From contig CM076259.1 in the NCBI GenBank assembly GCA_038380795.1, positions 96,645,739 to 96,709,738 on the forward strand: a stretch of 64,000 nucleotides of DNA, in the 5' to 3' direction. Shown in pieces: positions 8,054-18,789 of this stretch. Source of the stretch: Pyrocephalus nanus. Lineage: Eukaryota > Chordata > Aves > Passeriformes > Tyrannidae. The position numbers and the translations under genes were made by a program. Below the pieces are notes generated by a model. The model was not told the DNA's origin and searched no databases. It was given only the letters and a program-made list of their open reading frames with translations. Each line of letters begins with the position of its first letter. Position 1 is the stretch's first letter.

Positions 8054-9710
8054 TTTTGAAAGTCACCTGCAGTGATCACCTAGTTCAATTGCCTTACCAA
8101 TTCAGGGCTAACCAAGATAAAGCCTGTTATGCAGGACATTTTCCAAATGCCTCTTAAACACTGACAGGCTCAAGGCATTGACTCCCTCTCTAGGAAGCCT
8201 TTTCAAGTGTTTGGTTGCTTTCTTGATAAATGCTTCCTGATAAACCTTTACTGAAGCAACTTTGAACCATTCCCATACATTCTTTCATTGGATACTGGGG
8301 AGAAGAAATAAGCATCTCCCTCTCCACTTCCCCTTCTCAGGATGATGTAGAATGATGAGGATGGCCCTCAGTCTCCTAACCAAACTAGAAAAGCCCAAAG
8401 TCCTCAGCCAGTCCTCTCAGGACTTGCCTTCCAGCTCTGTCACCAGTTTTGTTTTCCTCTTCTGGATGCATTCAAGGACCTTCATGACCTTCATAACCTT
8501 CATAAACTGTGGGGCCCAACACTGCACACAGCAGGACTACACTAAATACAGCGGGATAATCACCTTTTCTGAGCATCTGCTGATGCTGTGTTTGATGCAT
8601 TCCAGGATGTGGTTGGCCCTCTTGGCTGCCTGGGCACTCTGTTGACTACTACAGAGCCTGCTGATGACCAGAACCCCAGATCCCTTTCTGCAGGGCTGAT
8701 CTCAAGCCACTCCCCTCCCCTCCCAATTTATAGTTGTGCCCAGCATTACTCTGTCCTAGATGCAGAATCTGGCATTTTGATTCGTTAAATTTCATCCCAT
8801 TAATCATTACCCAATGCTCCAAGCTATCTAGACCCCCCTGTAAGGCCTCTTGTCCCTCCAGAGAGTCAACAACACCTCCCAGTTTGGTATCATCAACAAA
8901 CTTGCATTCAGCTCCTGCATCCAGATTAATGACAAATACGTTAAACAGAGCTGACCCTAGAACTGAACCTTGTGAAATGTTGCTGGGGACTTGTCACAAG
9001 CCAGATGTAGGCCCATTCACTCCAACTCTTTGAGCCCCACCTTTCAGCCAGTTCTTCATCCAGCACACTATGAAACCACTCATCCCACAGTTGGGCAGAT
9101 TGTCCAGAAGGATGCTGTGAGGGATAGTATTAAAAGCCTTACTAAATTCAGAAAAACTACATCCTCTGTCTTCCCTTCATCCAGTAGGTGGGCGAATTTA
9201 TCACAGAAGGATATCAAATTAGCTAATCAGGACTTTCCCTTTGGAACTTATATTGACTCTGCCTGATGATTGCATCATTCTTAAAATGTCTTCTGATAGT
9301 ACCCATTAGAGTCTTCTCCATAATTTTTCCAGGAACTGACATTAAACTGCCAAGTTTATAGTTTCCTGAATCTTCCCTCACACCATTTTTGTGGATTGAA
9401 ATAACATTGGTTAGATTCCAGTCAGCTTAGGGAAGAGGTTTTACATCCAGAGTCTGTGGCTCAACATTGATGCATAGTCATTCAACCTCAGACCTTTATT
9501 TCTCCTTACATGGTGTTGCACGTCCATTTAAGTATGTTCCCCATAATTCCCTCAGCTCTATACTGCTGAGGGTTTTTTAGCCAGCTTTTGACATCATTTG
9601 CCAATCACGTCACTCCACGACACTGTGATACACCTTTTCCACAGTTTCAGGCACGGTTCTCCTGCTAGCTGTTGATCTAAAATCTTTGTTAAGATTCACT
9701 TATTGTCAGG
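8054..9710 (-). mobile_element. CR1 LINE with decayed reverse transcriptase
   Basis: The longest retrotransposon in the window, about 1.65 kb including part of ORF2. On the minus strand at 8874-8903 the sequence reads KFVDDTKLGG, the CR1 form of the reverse-transcriptase palm motif with the paired catalytic aspartates. It is preceded by LGSALFNVFVINLD, the expected upstream motif. Frameshifts and stops break the remainder. The usual distal ORF2 text follows (plus-strand 8200-8700) and then a pentamer tail. The 5' end fades near 9.7 kb. It is inactive, and its subfamily differs from the 5.4 and 49 kb copies. Confidence 0.88.
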
Positions 9711-14492: not shown

Positions 14493-15490
14493 ATAAGAAA
14501 ATGTGTTACCACAATATGAAAATTTTTAACAACCTTGATGAGAATTCATAAAAAGCATTGTGGCTGGTATTCAGATCTTTAAGCAACATGAACAGTAGGC
14601 TTATTTCCAGTCATTCCTGATCTCCTGGCATACATCCATCTTTTGGGGGTAGCTCAAAGAGATATATGGTGGGAGTTCACGGGGGTTTTTTGCCATGTCT
14701 GCTCTGTCAATTGTCTACTTGATTTTTCCTATTCAGTCAGTCTATTGCCAACCCCTACAAGCTCCAGAGGATTTTTGCTTAGAACATTCTAACTCAATAA
14801 AATGTAGCAATACTTGACAGAGTTTTTCTGTGGTTTGACAATGGAAAGATTTGTTCCATTTAACCACATGAAGACTTCATGGAAATTATCTTCCTTGAAG
14901 TACATGATCAACAGAAACAGATGGATACCAATACAAAAGGCACAGTGTTGTAATCAAACTTTTACAGAACTTTTAACAATCTTCTCAAGTGTGATGTCTG
15001 AGCTCAACTGATTCTCACGACCCCCAGCAAGATGAAAGTATATTTTAATTATTTAGGAGGCTAAAATGTAATGGTATTTTCTCTGTTTTTTTGGGAAAAA
15101 GTGGATGCTTTCTGCTGTTGAGATCTCTTTTAGAATAACATTTGTTATTCTAAAAATGCGCAATATTTGGTATGTTGCAAAATAATCTCAATCTTTTAGA
15201 CTCTTTGTATTGTTAACAGTTAATTGAACCAAATTCAAGTATTATTATACTTAATTCATCTGTTCATTTGACTTAAACTTTTGCAAAGATTTTTAAATTC
15301 TACATTTGTATCACTTTTTTTTCTCTGCTAAGTCTTAAAATAAAAAAATTTTGACATATCAAAGCAGAAAAACTGCACAAAAATTAAAGAGTTATTACAG
15401 ACAACAATAACCATTAAAAAAGGAGTGAAGTTTTCATAATATTTTGATATTTAGTCTTCTACTTCTTCACTTGCTTATCTAGGTACCTTA
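14493..15490. other. Unique DNA with a long perfect hairpin
   Basis: No gene or interspersed repeat is recognised. A perfect 13-bp inverted repeat lies at 15128-15155. Confidence 0.5.
15128..15155. repeat. Perfect 13-bp inverted repeat, 2-nt loop
   Basis: Arms TTTTAGAATAACA (15128-15140) and TGTTATTCTAAAA (15143-15155) are perfectly complementary around TT. Confidence 0.9.
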
Positions 15491-15824
15491 TGTGTCCCAA
15501 TTTCAATGGGACAAGGGTCTTCTGCTGAGGATGGATTAGGAGGAAAAGACCCCAAACTTTTTCCTAAGCAATTATTAATCCAAAACCAAGGAGCTTTGAT
15601 TGAAGGGAAAAAAAACAAATTATGGAAAAGGGAAAACAAAATAACAGCCCTTTATTAAAAGGTATGTTTGTATTAACAAGAACACAAAAAAAACCCAAGT
15701 AAACAACCAAGCAATACTACTATATCCACCAATAATCCCCTTCAAGAACAAAACCGATAGCCCGGCAAAAGGAAAATTTAAATAGTTCAATTTTTAGCAC
15801 CCTTTGGTGTAGTTCCAACCACAG

Positions 15825-15839
15825 TCAGCAGGGGGCGCC
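15825..15839 (+). promoter_or_regulatory. CTCF-like core motif 1
   Basis: TCAGCAGGGGGCGCC fits the CTCF core CCANNAGRKGGCRSY at every position except the first. Confidence 0.55.
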
Positions 15840-15882
15840 GTCGGGTCACTGGAGATGTAAAACTTGTAATGTCCTGTACCAT

Positions 15883-15897
15883 TCACCAGGTGGCGCT
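15883..15897 (+). promoter_or_regulatory. CTCF-like core motif 2
   Basis: TCACCAGGTGGCGCT fits the core at every position except the first, and contains the CpG whose methylation is known to block CTCF. Confidence 0.6.
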
Positions 15898-15940
15898 GTT
15901 GGGTCGTTGGAAGTGCAGAACCTGTAGTGTCCTATGGTAG

Positions 15941-15955
15941 TCACCAGGTGGCGCT
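15941..15955 (+). promoter_or_regulatory. CTCF-like core motif 3
   Basis: Identical to motif 2, 58 bp downstream in the same orientation. Confidence 0.6.
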
Positions 15956-15998
15956 GTTGGATCACTACAGGAGCAGAGCTTGTAATATCCAGTGCCTG

Positions 15999-16013
15999 TC
16001 ACCAGGCAGCGCT
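15999..16013 (+). promoter_or_regulatory. CTCF-like core motif 4, decayed
   Basis: TCACCAGGCAGCGCT has CA in place of the KG of the core. These are important contact positions, so binding is expected to be weak or lost. Confidence 0.35.
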
Positions 16014-16146
16014 GTGGGATCCCTGGTCACTGCCACGTGGGATGGGGAAAACAAAAAAAAAACAACAACAACACCCCCCAGGGTATATCGGAGAAAAAAC
16101 AACAAAAAAACCTGATTCCTCTTCCCCTCCCGAGGAAAAGGAGGAA

Positions 16147-16174
16147 GGGGGGGGGCCGAAGGGGAAGGGGGGAA
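16147..16174 (+). other. G-quadruplex-prone tract in LTR
   Basis: Runs of nine, four and six G are separated by ccgaa and aa. The nine-G run can supply two strands, giving a possible four-stranded fold on the plus strand. Confidence 0.5.
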
Positions 16175-16451
16175 CGGAAAAAAAACAACACCGACAACAC
16201 AGAAAGTTCTCTCAATGGAAGAAAAAACTCACGAACTCCGGGGGGGCCCCGACGAGCAGGAATAGCGGGGAAAGAACCGCAGCAGCCAAAAAAAAAAACT
16301 TCCCTCCGACAGGAAAAACAACAACAAAAAAAAAAAAACCAAAAGAACCAGTGTCTGCCGCTCACAGCAGCCTCTCCTCCTCCGCGCGACCCAGCCGACT
16401 CCCCCCCACCTCCTTCCAGCCCCACACACCAGCCCCAACTCCTCCCCCTTC

Positions 16452-16464
16452 GTTGCTAGGCAAC
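16452..16464 (-). promoter_or_regulatory. RFX X-box-like palindrome
   Basis: On the minus strand the sequence is GTTGCCTAGCAAC. It matches the RFX X-box pattern GTNRCC-N(0-3)-RGYAAC exactly with a one-base spacer. In the minus-strand reading it lies about 130 bp from the start of the LTR, in the expected U3 enhancer region. Confidence 0.5.
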
Positions 16465-16526
16465 TAATGTTCGACCATTAGCGCTGCGGCTAGTTCTTTT
16501 GTTTTCACCTGAATGGGTGTGCTGAG

Positions 16527-16542
16527 CACACACACACACACA
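16527..16542. repeat. (CA)8 microsatellite
   Basis: Eight CA units close to the right end of the LTR. Confidence 0.9.
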
Positions 16543-16592
16543 GGGGGAGGGGAAGGGAAGAAAAATTCCTTGCTAAAGTCAGAACTATGACA

Positions 16593-18789
16593 CTTATGTC
16601 AATAGTTCAAGTCCTCCAAAGTAGTATTTGCTTCAGAAGGCAGCAACAAAACATCATTAGTCTAAAATCCGATTTCAGATAAAGGTATTATCAGTTCTAC
16701 AGGTTAAAACAGGTTCTAGGTTCTACAGGTTAAAACCTGTAGAACATGCAATGACATGTTCTTTTCTCAGTTCCCTTCACAAGGGTATTTATTCTGTGAG
16801 TTAGCAACAAGAGTATGGGAATCAGAACTTTTATAACTTGTTCAGTTTGGGGTCACTGCAAGTGAACTTTTCAGCTTTCCTAAGCCATAAGCATTTAAAA
16901 CTCATACTAGCAATGCCAATATCAAACAAAAAAGAAAACATCATAAATTACATATAGTCACTGAATCTCTCATGAAGGTAAGCTGTATAACTTAATTATG
17001 TTTTTTAAAATGGACCAGGAGAGCAATCTATGGTGCGAATATAAAAGTTCATCTTAGGGGACAAGATTACATAATGTTGATATTTGTTGTATGCCGTAAT
17101 TTGCTATTTTAAAATCAACCAAAATAAAAAGCTGTAAGAATACCAGCTCTGACTATCAAACCTGAAGATACATAACAAAACAAAACAAAAGTAAAAATCT
17201 CAATTTCACATAGCAATATACTCTTTACATTTTATCAAGAAGACATTTAGTAGTCTGTCAAACTTTCATATTTTAAATATAAATTAAAATCTATGACATT
17301 TTTCTCTTTATGGAAATGGAAATTAAAAACATTTTAGAAGCCTCAAACAGCGTCATTTGCCTCTTAAATCTTATCACTTCATTCATTTTCTCAGACTAGC
17401 TTTTCTACTCCGGCAACTACTTATTTTGAATACAATGAAATAATTTTTAAGTGTTAGAACAAGGTCTATATCAAATTCCAGGACTGACCTGGCTCAAAAT
17501 ATAGTTTTATTGGGATGCACTTGCACTTTTTATCTAGTGCCAGTTTAGGTCATAAATACAAACCTAATACAGCATGGAAGGTTTTGATTGCAATTATACA
17601 TAGGTAAATCTAAACCATTTTTTTTTTCAACACTGATAGTAACTACGTTGTTGTAACTGTTGTCAATCAACTATTTCCACAAAATTATGACTTGTAGTAC
17701 TGCATCTTGTCACAGAGTGCTGAATTCAGTTTGTGTCCCACTCAGAGAGAGGTGCTGGTGCAGCCTGTCAAGTAGAAATCAAAGGGCTTCACTTGGGAAT
17801 TTGTCAATAGGGTCAAAAGATAATGGAATTTGGTCATCAATGATTTTCCATCCTCACCATGACCCAAACTCGTAAATATTGACCTTTTTTTCCAAAGTCA
17901 ACAATTGTACCGTTCCACTAAGGCTGCAATTCACAATGTTACTGCTTCATTTGGGCAGGTAAATGGTTTACTAAGGCTACAAATGATAATTGCTTATCCT
18001 TTGCTTCCCATCTTGTTTGGGCAGATGATGTTTCCAGTTGTTGGTTGTTCCCACCTCTACCATCCAAGTGCTCCTGGTATGATCAGGGAGTGTTTCAGAG
18101 CTTGGCTGATACAGTCATTGGATACTTCACTGCTCAGCTGGTTCAGTCAAAGGCTCATCAGGAGCTTCTGAGATCATAGAGCAGGTTTGAGGATGTGAGC
18201 TGGGGGGATGGACCACCACAGTGATATGAACTTATAAATTATGGGTGTCATAGCTTCACTACAGTAGTTACAGAAACAAAATTCAGCAAAAGTGAATGGG
18301 ATACTTGGCATTAAATATGCCAGGCCATGTAGGAGAATGAATTTGCAGCCTGTGGAGCACTAAGCCTGGAGATTTGAGTTCAAGTTCTACCTGTCATGCC
18401 ATTTGCAATTCAGAATGAAACAGCTTCAATAAGCAAAATTGGAAGGAGGGCACTCAAAATGCAGAGTAAAGAAGAATACATTGTTACATAAAATGTCAGG
18501 ATTCAGAACTCTGCTCCAGGACCGAGGACAGTGTGATGCGTTCTGAGTCACCTTCTTTGCAAGTGTCTGTGGAACCCACCAGGATATGGTCATATAATAT
18601 TGGATCTAAATGATAAATTAAGTAGATCTGAAGGCTCTCACTTCTCTTAAACTCATCATAAGCAGACATTTGGATATCTTTCACAGAATACTTTCACAGA
18701 AATCAAACAAACAAACAAAATCCCTCAGGACACTAGATAGCTCTTTCATGAAAATTCAGCTAGACAGGTTGAAATCTTCCTTCAGCCAT
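16593..18789. other. Unique DNA, possible SINE remnant
   Basis: No gene is recognised. At 16694-16745 there is a combined direct and inverted repeat. A stretch around 18350-18400 reads 'gcactaagcctggagatttgagttcaagttctacc', which resembles the box B region of a tRNA-derived SINE, but the match is too weak to classify. The frame 17905-18171 (88 codons) has no known domain. Confidence 0.45.
16694..16745. repeat. Direct plus perfect inverted repeat
   Basis: The 17-mer gttctacaggttaaaac occurs at 16694-16710 and 16720-16736. The second copy continues into a perfect inverted repeat, arms GTTCTACAGGTT (16720-16731) and AACCTGTAGAAC (16734-16745) around AA. Confidence 0.9.

What the first reader, a model, noticed from the sequence alone, without database searches (positions are those of the whole stretch)
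15825..16013. Tandem array of CTCF-like sites in exact 58-bp register inside an LTR
Four copies of a CTCF core-like motif occur at 15825, 15883, 15941 and 15999, all on the plus strand and all exactly 58 bp apart. Three match CCANNAGRKGGCRSY at 14 of 15 positions, and the fourth is decayed at two contact bases. The unit is a 58-bp minisatellite, so unit amplification also amplified the site. CTCF orientation sets loop direction, and each strong site contains a CpG where methylation could switch binding. A tightly spaced same-direction stack carried by a mobile LTR could spread ready-made directional insulators. The CTCF identity is inferred from the motif only.
Basis: partly seen in the sequence, partly recalled or inferred. 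Interest (0 to 1): 0.85.

Follow-up and report, generated by a model that had tools for sequence, protein, structure and literature searches.

The report
Bird retrovirus LTR with stacked CTCF sites
A young, high-copy retrovirus-like element in a bird-like genome carries a stack of one to four same-facing predicted binding sites for the genome-folding protein CTCF, so its spread may have sown ready-made directional boundary signals, although actual CTCF binding has not been shown.

Summary
Four CTCF-core matches sit on one strand in exact 58-bp register. Three score 18.1, 16.8 and 19.2 bits, the best three of the 64-kb window on both strands; the fourth scores 7.8 (recalled JASPAR MA0139.1 matrix). 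They lie in an 1100-bp solo LTR on the minus strand (15493-16592), so they run antisense to it. The LTR belongs to a young, high-copy, ERVL/spuma-like family. In 78 insertions chosen without looking at the array, 73 keep a site of 12 bits or more, none has one on the minus strand, and 93 of 99 spacings are exactly 58 bp. Unit number runs from 1 to 4 and tends to rise towards the young clade. The weak fourth site is a family state.

Selection is partly supported. Shared (lineage) changes in the motif harm the matrix score less than random, while private changes overall look random (weaker with midpoint rooting). But the core is not plainly more conserved than the spacer. Motif CpGs in diverged copies decay about as fast as other CpGs, so the sites look methylated in the germ line. 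CTCF occupancy is untested.

The parts
15493..16592 (-). solo LTR, 1100 bp, TG...CA ends, sense on the minus strand
   Evidence: ends, duplication, AATAAA in minus-strand sense; 40 full-length matches (one is the window copy) with the same ends, give or take one base
15487..15492 (.). target-site duplication CTTATG, left copy (6 bp)
16593..16598 (.). target-site duplication CTTATG, right copy
15822..15840 (+). CTCF-like site 1, 18.1 bits (CpG at 15836)
15880..15898 (+). CTCF-like site 2, 16.8 bits (CpG at 15894)
15938..15956 (+). CTCF-like site 3, 19.2 bits (CpG at 15952)
15996..16014 (+). weak CTCF-like site 4, 7.8 bits; the weak state is shared by the young family
15822..16021 (+). 58-bp tandem array, three full units and a partial fourth
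15807..15816 (+). weak upstream-motif-like 10-mer of site 1, 6 of 10 matches to the published CAGCTGTTCC, linker 5 bp
   Evidence: consensus and linker from PMC12885311
15778..15784 (-). TATTTAA, TATA-like, 37 bp downstream of the array in LTR sense; role inferred only, poorly kept in older copies
15651..15656 (-). AATAAA polyadenylation signal of the LTR

Best explanation
The array is part of the LTR of an ERVL/spuma-like endogenous retrovirus family that recently amplified in a bird-like genome. In this family the direct-repeat block of the LTR consists of a 58-bp unit built around a CTCF core site. Unit number ranges from 1 to 4 among copies and is highest in the youngest clade. Shown by sequence: motif quality, register, one orientation, family-wide presence, unit-number range. 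Inferred: the sites bind CTCF when unmethylated, and a promoter-side CTCF cluster helps the element, for example by shielding or opening its promoter or setting the side from which cohesin is stopped. Its spread then leaves same-facing CTCF clusters as a by-product. By the published rule the N-terminal side of CTCF faces right in the window, towards the upstream end of the LTR. After insertion most copies seem to decay neutrally and look methylated in the germ line, so occupancy today is probably limited to some tissues, stages or young copies.
For: Top three matrix hits of the window. In 78 array-blind insertions (one is the window copy), 73 have a site of 12 bits or more, 60 have two or more, 0 have one on the minus strand, and 93 of 99 spacings are 58 bp. 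Old copies reach 24.1 of 26.05 bits. Unit counts are 4, 3, 2, 1 in 38, 26, 11, 2 of 77 copies. Unit number correlates with identity to the window outside the array: rho 0.81 over 77 copies and 0.51 over the 38 old ones. Lineage changes in the motif average -0.95 bits against -2.44 expected at random (outgroup rooting); private changes average -2.25 against -2.33. Non-CpG lineage changes go to a base tolerated by the matrix in 23 of 44 cases, private ones in 29 of 92, p 0.024. Chicken CTCF uses the same core and upstream motifs as mammals (PMC5504073, passages). Insulation grew with tandem CTCF sites in assays reported or cited by PMC12885311 (passages and introduction).
Against: Raw diversity does not single out the core. 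Lineage changes per column are as frequent in the core as in the spacer (0.70 against 0.68); core against spacer plus flank in lineage and private changes gives Fisher p 0.45. The selection signal weakens with midpoint rooting: -1.47 against -2.40 expected, 0.064 of column-permuted matrices reach it, against 0.005 with outgroup rooting. At site 4 private non-CpG changes are also milder than random (-1.29 against -2.75, p 0.021), so the lineage/private contrast rests on sites 1-2. Motif CpGs decay like other LTR CpGs on long private branches (35 of 93 against 110 of 260, p 0.46). The upstream motif is weak at site 1 and absent at sites 2-4 of this copy. All four sites have T at the first core base. 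The longest low-diversity run of the unit is a TCAC block after the core. Nearest neighbours among old copies do not share unit number more than chance (19 of 38, shuffled mean 16.4), so in-register losses blur the growth story. No occupancy data.
Confidence: 0.55

Rival explanations
1. A neutral minisatellite: the ancestral LTR happened to hold one CTCF-like site, slippage or unequal exchange multiplied the unit, and CTCF is not used by the element or the host.
For: Core no more conserved than spacer in raw diversity or in the number of lineage changes; CpG decay without clear protection; in-register losses occur in young copies (2-3 units in L090, L115, L131, L140).
Against: Lineage changes in the motif are milder than random while private ones overall are not (with the limits told above); last sites of some old copies reach 24.1 of 26.05 bits; 73 of 78 copies keep a site of 12 bits or more.
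Confidence: 0.25
2. A U3 direct-repeat enhancer whose main factor is not CTCF. The unit also holds an E-box (CAGGTG) and a strongly conserved TCAC block next to the core; another factor may drive repeat growth and the CTCF match may be secondary.
For: The longest low-diversity run in the unit lies at register 24-27 (pi 0.05-0.08), outside the CTCF core. Tandem repeats upstream of the promoter are typical of retroviral U3 (recalled).
Against: Site 1 has CAGGGG instead of the E-box yet keeps 18.1 bits for CTCF. Scores of 18 or more came up once in 4 million random 19-mers at 40% GC (2.5e-7). Motif changes on lineage branches follow the CTCF matrix (outgroup rooting).
Confidence: 0.15
3. A host-side insulator array: individual insertions were kept by the host as domain boundaries.
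For: TE-derived CTCF sites act as loop anchors in mammals, one LTR41 copy tested by deletion (PMC6979391, passages).
Against: After insertion the motif changes overall as random mutation predicts (private changes; site 4 is an exception), so the bulk of copies does not look kept for CTCF. Single loci were not tested.
Confidence: 0.05

Closest known systems
Rodent B2 SINEs and other mammalian retroelements that spread CTCF sites (PMC3368268, summary and passages)
   Same: A mobile element carries a CTCF site and multiplies it through a genome.
   Different: As recalled, one site per SINE copy; here an LTR with up to four same-facing sites in 58-bp register, in a bird-like genome.
Human LTR41-derived CTCF loop anchor (PMC6979391, passages)
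   Same: An ERV LTR provides an oriented CTCF motif; deletion of one copy shifted a loop anchor.
   Different: 'Tandem' has 0 occurrences in that main text; function was tested there and not here.
HTLV-1 viral CTCF site (PMC12165413, abstract)
   Same: A retrovirus carries a CTCF site with insulator-like activity on its own chromatin.
   Different: Single site per provirus there; a multi-site LTR array here, so two arrays per provirus.
TguERVL2-type songbird ERVL LTR retrotransposons (PMC6523648, passages)
   Same: Young avian ERVL elements, mostly solo LTRs; LTR superfamilies there were assigned by duplication length.
   Different: CTCF and minisatellite have 0 occurrences in that paper's main text. 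Sequence identity to TguERVL2 was not tested.
Tandem CTCF insulators in reporter assays (PMC12885311, passages and introduction)
   Same: Several tandem CTCF sites insulate better than one.
   Different: Those are engineered insertions of host sites; here the array arose inside a mobile element.

Membership tests
CTCF binding site | match to the core motif well above chance | tested here: met
   18.1, 16.8 and 19.2 bits, top three of the window; fourth 7.8 (matrix recalled)
CTCF binding site | upstream motif at linker 2-7 bp (present in a minority of sites) | tested here: inconclusive
   site 1: 6 of 10 at linker 5; sites 2-4: 4, 5 and 3 of 10; in LTR copies 6 or more arises at about 14% of random places
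CTCF binding site | occupancy by CTCF in cells | not testable with these tools
   no ChIP or CUT&RUN data on hand
CTCF binding site | CpG in the motif protected from decay by germ-line binding (optional feature) | tested here: not met
   private branches over 0.02: 35 of 93 motif CpGs changed against 110 of 260 other CpGs, p 0.46; over all private branches, transitions only, 32 of 233 against 93 of 489, p 0.09
ERVL / class III (spuma-like) LTR | LTR with TG...CA ends and polyadenylation signal | tested here: met
ERVL / class III (spuma-like) LTR | 5-bp target-site duplication | tested here: inconclusive
   of 21 non-proviral copies 19 show 5 bp, one (L042) none, and the window copy 6 bp
ERVL / class III (spuma-like) LTR | reverse transcriptase closest to spumaviruses | tested here: inconclusive
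   one 2-kb piece of one provirus: best PDB chains are Pr125Pol (7o24; foamy virus, recalled), E 1.7e-52, closely followed by p80 reverse transcriptase (5dmq), E 4.5e-51; Pfam RVT_1 and RNase_H. No tree was built.
Insulator / TAD boundary | enhancer blocking or boundary in contact maps | not testable with these tools
   no assay or Hi-C data on hand

The most novel reading that the evidence does not exclude
An avian ERVL-like retrovirus lineage built a CTCF-site array in its LTR by successive unit duplication while selection kept the sites bindable. Its recent burst then planted several hundred same-facing CTCF clusters, so that more than half of all places with the strict CpG-bearing core word CASCAGGKGGCGCYG in this genome come from this one family.
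Probability: 0.4. Interest if true: 0.78.

Novelty: new variant of a known kind. Interest (0 to 1): 0.6.

Why it matters
If CTCF binds, this is a natural series of one, two, three and four tandem same-facing CTCF sites on related inserts scattered through one genome, with young copies differing by a few percent. Published assays say that insulation depends on site number and orientation, but with engineered inserts. Here dosage, spacing, orientation and methylation could be read at hundreds of native places. It would also show a retrovirus lineage amplifying an architectural-protein site inside its LTR, which bears on why ERVs carry CTCF sites at all.

Tried and rejected
Counting lineage changes per column: no depletion. 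Full two-part CTCF site in every unit: my hunch after reading the upstream flank; rejected for sites 2-4, weak for site 1. TATA-like TATTTAA as proof of the promoter place: TATA-like match in all 40 young rows but in 5 of 38 old ones, so the U3/R border stays unproven. Clean stepwise growth by clade: nearest-neighbour test not significant. Viral-contig scan for the unit: 0 matches. Rfam scan of the window: 0 matches. The TCASYAGRKGGCRSY baseline did not complete, so the family's share of all CTCF-like sites is not estimated. The script stopped with an error after the provirus pairs, so its planned summary of distances among copies was not obtained.

Paper searches for an avian LTR with CTCF arrays (open-licence PMC papers only; listed of found: 20 of 39, 20 of 71, 2 of 2, 20 of 53, 12 of 20, 10 of 63, 4 of 4): none of the listed titles and abstract beginnings describes one. 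One search asked for at least two of CTCF, GGLTR, TguLTR, TguERVL and avian ERV; CTCF occurs in two of its 4 papers (PMC7787181, passages read; PMC8375133, listing only).

Full report
WHAT IS THERE. The window is a stretch of a 1.07-Gb genome in 153 contigs. At 15822-16021 lies a 58-bp tandem array, three full units and a partial fourth. Each unit starts with a CTCF-core-like 19-mer on the plus strand. In simulation a score of 18 or more came up once in 4 million random 19-mers at 40% GC.

THE LTR. The array sits in an 1100-bp LTR at 15493-16592 with TG...CA ends, flanked by the 6-bp repeat CTTATG. Read on the minus strand the LTR holds one AATAAA, at 15656-15651. The LTR therefore reads leftwards and is solo. 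The CTCF-like sites are antisense to it. CpG observed/expected is 0.50 in the LTR against 0.13 in the window, in line with a recent insertion.

THE FAMILY. A 451-bp query gave 933 first-look candidates, of which 40 were scored, all at 98-100% identity and one of them the window itself. Six pairs of hits lie about 6.4 kb apart on one strand and one pair 4.35 kb apart, as LTRs of proviruses would. Of the 43 loci held, 40 gave full LTR matches and three partial ones. Nineteen of the 40 are proviral LTRs; of the other 21, 19 have 5-bp duplications, the window copy 6 bp, and L042 none. The 11 proviral 5' LTRs are followed by TGGCGCCCAAC (10) or a one-base variant (1), a lysine-type primer site (recalled). 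The two LTRs of seven proviruses differ by 0.18-0.91%, so insertion is recent. One 2-kb internal piece is open in one frame, holds reverse transcriptase and RNase H domains, and is closest among solved structures to Pr125Pol (foamy virus, recalled), closely followed by p80 reverse transcriptases. Together this suggests an ERVL/spuma-like element, without proof by a tree.

AN ARRAY-BLIND SAMPLE. To avoid choosing copies by the feature under test, I searched a 20-mer from the polyadenylation region of the LTR: 604 exact places genome-wide, reversed control 0. The 100 listed places lie on contigs 1 and 2. I dropped 22 second LTRs of presumed proviruses (spacing 6.2-6.4 kb) and fetched the remaining 78, one of them the window copy. 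The sample is by position, not random, and is conditioned on that 20-mer. Of 78 copies, 73 have at least one site of 12 bits or more and 60 have two or more. None has such a site on the minus strand in the array zone. Of 99 spacings between successive sites, 93 are exactly 58 bp. At 10 bits two copies, L113 and L116, have a minus-strand hit. One copy, L071, has no array-like sequence and was left out of the alignment work (77 left). Unit counts are 4 in 38 copies, 3 in 26, 2 in 11 and 1 in 2. Unit number rises with identity to the window outside the array (rho 0.81 over 77; 0.51, p 0.001, over the 38 old copies). Against clean growth: nearest neighbours among old copies share unit number in only 19 of 38 cases, shuffled mean 16.4, and some young copies have lost units. 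In old copies the last site can reach 24.1 bits, whereas it is weak or missing in the 39 young copies. The weak fourth site of the window is thus a family state: 27 of the 28 loci scanned (the window copy among them) have it at 7.8 bits and one (L022) scores below 7.

SHARE OF THE GENOME'S STRICT WORDS. CASCAGGKGGCGCYG, a class of eight CpG-bearing core words, has 1540 exact places, reversed control 0. The 20-mer TCACCAGGTGGCGCTGTTGG, which contains one such word and is the young family's unit sequence, alone has 835 places, control 0; taking these as family copies, at least 54% of the strict words are the family's. In the 100 listed places (contig 1, 0.6-86.7 Mb) 94 lie in 58-bp-spaced chains. 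Six are single: three lie in LTR copies already held (L026, L065, L088), two are older family copies with a match across the word (L144, L145), and one, L143, has a clear LTR match beside the word (E 5e-18) but only a weak one across it (E 2e-4), so it is doubtful. The rest of the genome is less one-sided: three strict words on contig 2 (L159, L160, L161) show no family match at all. The CCA-type consensus CCASYAGRKGGCRSY, which the young family does not match because of its T, has 645 places, control 29. I fetched 20 of the 100 listed: the three single places above and 17 others that I picked by hand along the list, leaving out places in copies already held. Two of the 17 were family copies (L157, L158). 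Eight more listed places lie in family copies held before, so at least 12 of the 100 listed are the family's. The TCA-type count did not complete. The family's share of all CTCF-like sites is therefore unknown; its share of this one word class is more than half.

DOES SELECTION KEEP THE SITES? Three tests, mixed result. (1) Raw pairwise diversity among 38 old copies (sites 1, 2 and 4; site 3 had too few): informative core columns 0.213, spacer 0.244; the core ranks 22 of 58 register shifts, and diversity does not follow information content (rho -0.08, p 0.58). The core is not singled out. (2) Parsimony on a tree built without motif columns: lineage changes per column 0.70 in the core and 0.68 in the spacer, no depletion. 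(3) Effect of changes on the matrix score: 60 lineage changes average -0.95 bits against -2.44 expected for random changes of the same class from the same parent; 150 private changes average -2.25 against -2.33 (simulation). With outgroup rooting 0.005 of column-permuted matrices reach the lineage excess; with midpoint rooting 59 lineage changes average -1.47 against -2.40, and 0.064 reach it. By site, private non-CpG changes are as harmful as random at sites 1-2 (-3.07 against -2.79) but milder at site 4 (-1.29 against -2.75, p 0.021), where the lineage changes are milder too (p 0.024), so the contrast between lineage and private changes rests on sites 1-2. The outgroup, the two one-unit copies, was my choice. 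I read this as moderate support that the matrix mattered while the family was active and matters little in dead copies.

METHYLATION. On the 41 private branches of 0.02 or more, CpGs in the motif changed in 35 of 93 cases, other CpGs in 110 of 260, and all bases in 1432 of 24149. CpG decay is thus strong and the motif is not clearly protected (p 0.46). Over all private branches, transitions only, the figures are 32 of 233 in the motif, 28 of 189 elsewhere in the array and 65 of 300 in the flank (motif against the other two, p 0.09), so a slight protection is not excluded. Diverged copies are probably methylated in the germ line.

UPSTREAM MOTIF AND PROMOTER. The published upstream element resembles CAGCTGTTCC with a linker of usually 5 bp, range 2-7 (PMC12885311, introduction). 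Site 1 matches 6 of 10 at linker 5; sites 2-4 match 4, 5 and 3. In LTR copies 6 or more arises at about 14% of random places, so this is weak. A TATTTAA lies 37 bp downstream of the array in LTR sense; all 40 young rows (39 copies and the window row) have a TATA-like match in that stretch but only 5 of 38 old ones. If it is the TATA box, the array occupies the promoter-proximal U3, where retroviral direct repeats usually sit (recalled). That is inference.

DIRECTION. PMC12885311 states that loops extrude on the N-terminal (ZF3) side, which lies downstream of the core (for both). In the window that side faces right, towards the upstream end of the LTR. The array would thus stop cohesin that arrives from the right. 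This is a prediction from the motif only.

COMPARISON. TE-borne CTCF sites are well known in mammals (PMC3368268, summary and passages; PMC6979391, passages), and HTLV-1 has a single proviral CTCF site (PMC12165413, abstract). Chicken CTCF uses the same core and upstream motifs as mammals (PMC5504073, passages). The duck genome paper reports putative CTCF motifs at TAD boundaries and says that it found various TEs in this connection; the passage as shown breaks off there (PMC7787181). None of the titles and abstract beginnings listed in my searches (lists capped in five of the seven) describes a tandem CTCF array inside an avian LTR; subscription papers and bioRxiv are outside that library. 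I call it a new variant of a known kind.

Noticed in passing
15846-15849 and the same register in later units: The longest low-diversity run of the 58-bp unit among old copies is not in the CTCF core but is a TCAC block at register 24-27 (pi 0.05-0.08). No factor was assigned.
   Followed up: partly
16452-16464: GTTGCTAGGCAAC (GTTGCCTAGCAAC in LTR sense), an X-box/RFX-like palindrome (resemblance recalled), in the distal part of the LTR.
   Followed up: no
16694-16745: GTTCTACAGGTTAAAAC twice directly and once inverted with 88% complementarity, just outside the LTR.
   Followed up: no
8649-8993, minus strand: Reverse transcriptase fragment, CR1-like (naming recalled); Pfam RVT_1 at 25.1 bits, below its cut-off.
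   Followed up: partly
L067, L069, L070, L073 and others, between sites 3 and 4: Many young copies share 55 instead of 58 bp between sites 3 and 4, a 3-bp deletion that marks a sub-lineage; the window copy has 58.
   Followed up: no
15487-15492 and 16593-16598: The window copy has a 6-bp target duplication whereas 19 of the other 20 non-proviral copies show 5 bp.
   Followed up: partly
L159, L160, L161: Three strict CTCF core words on contig 2 without any match to the LTR family, so not all such words in the genome come from it.
   Followed up: partly
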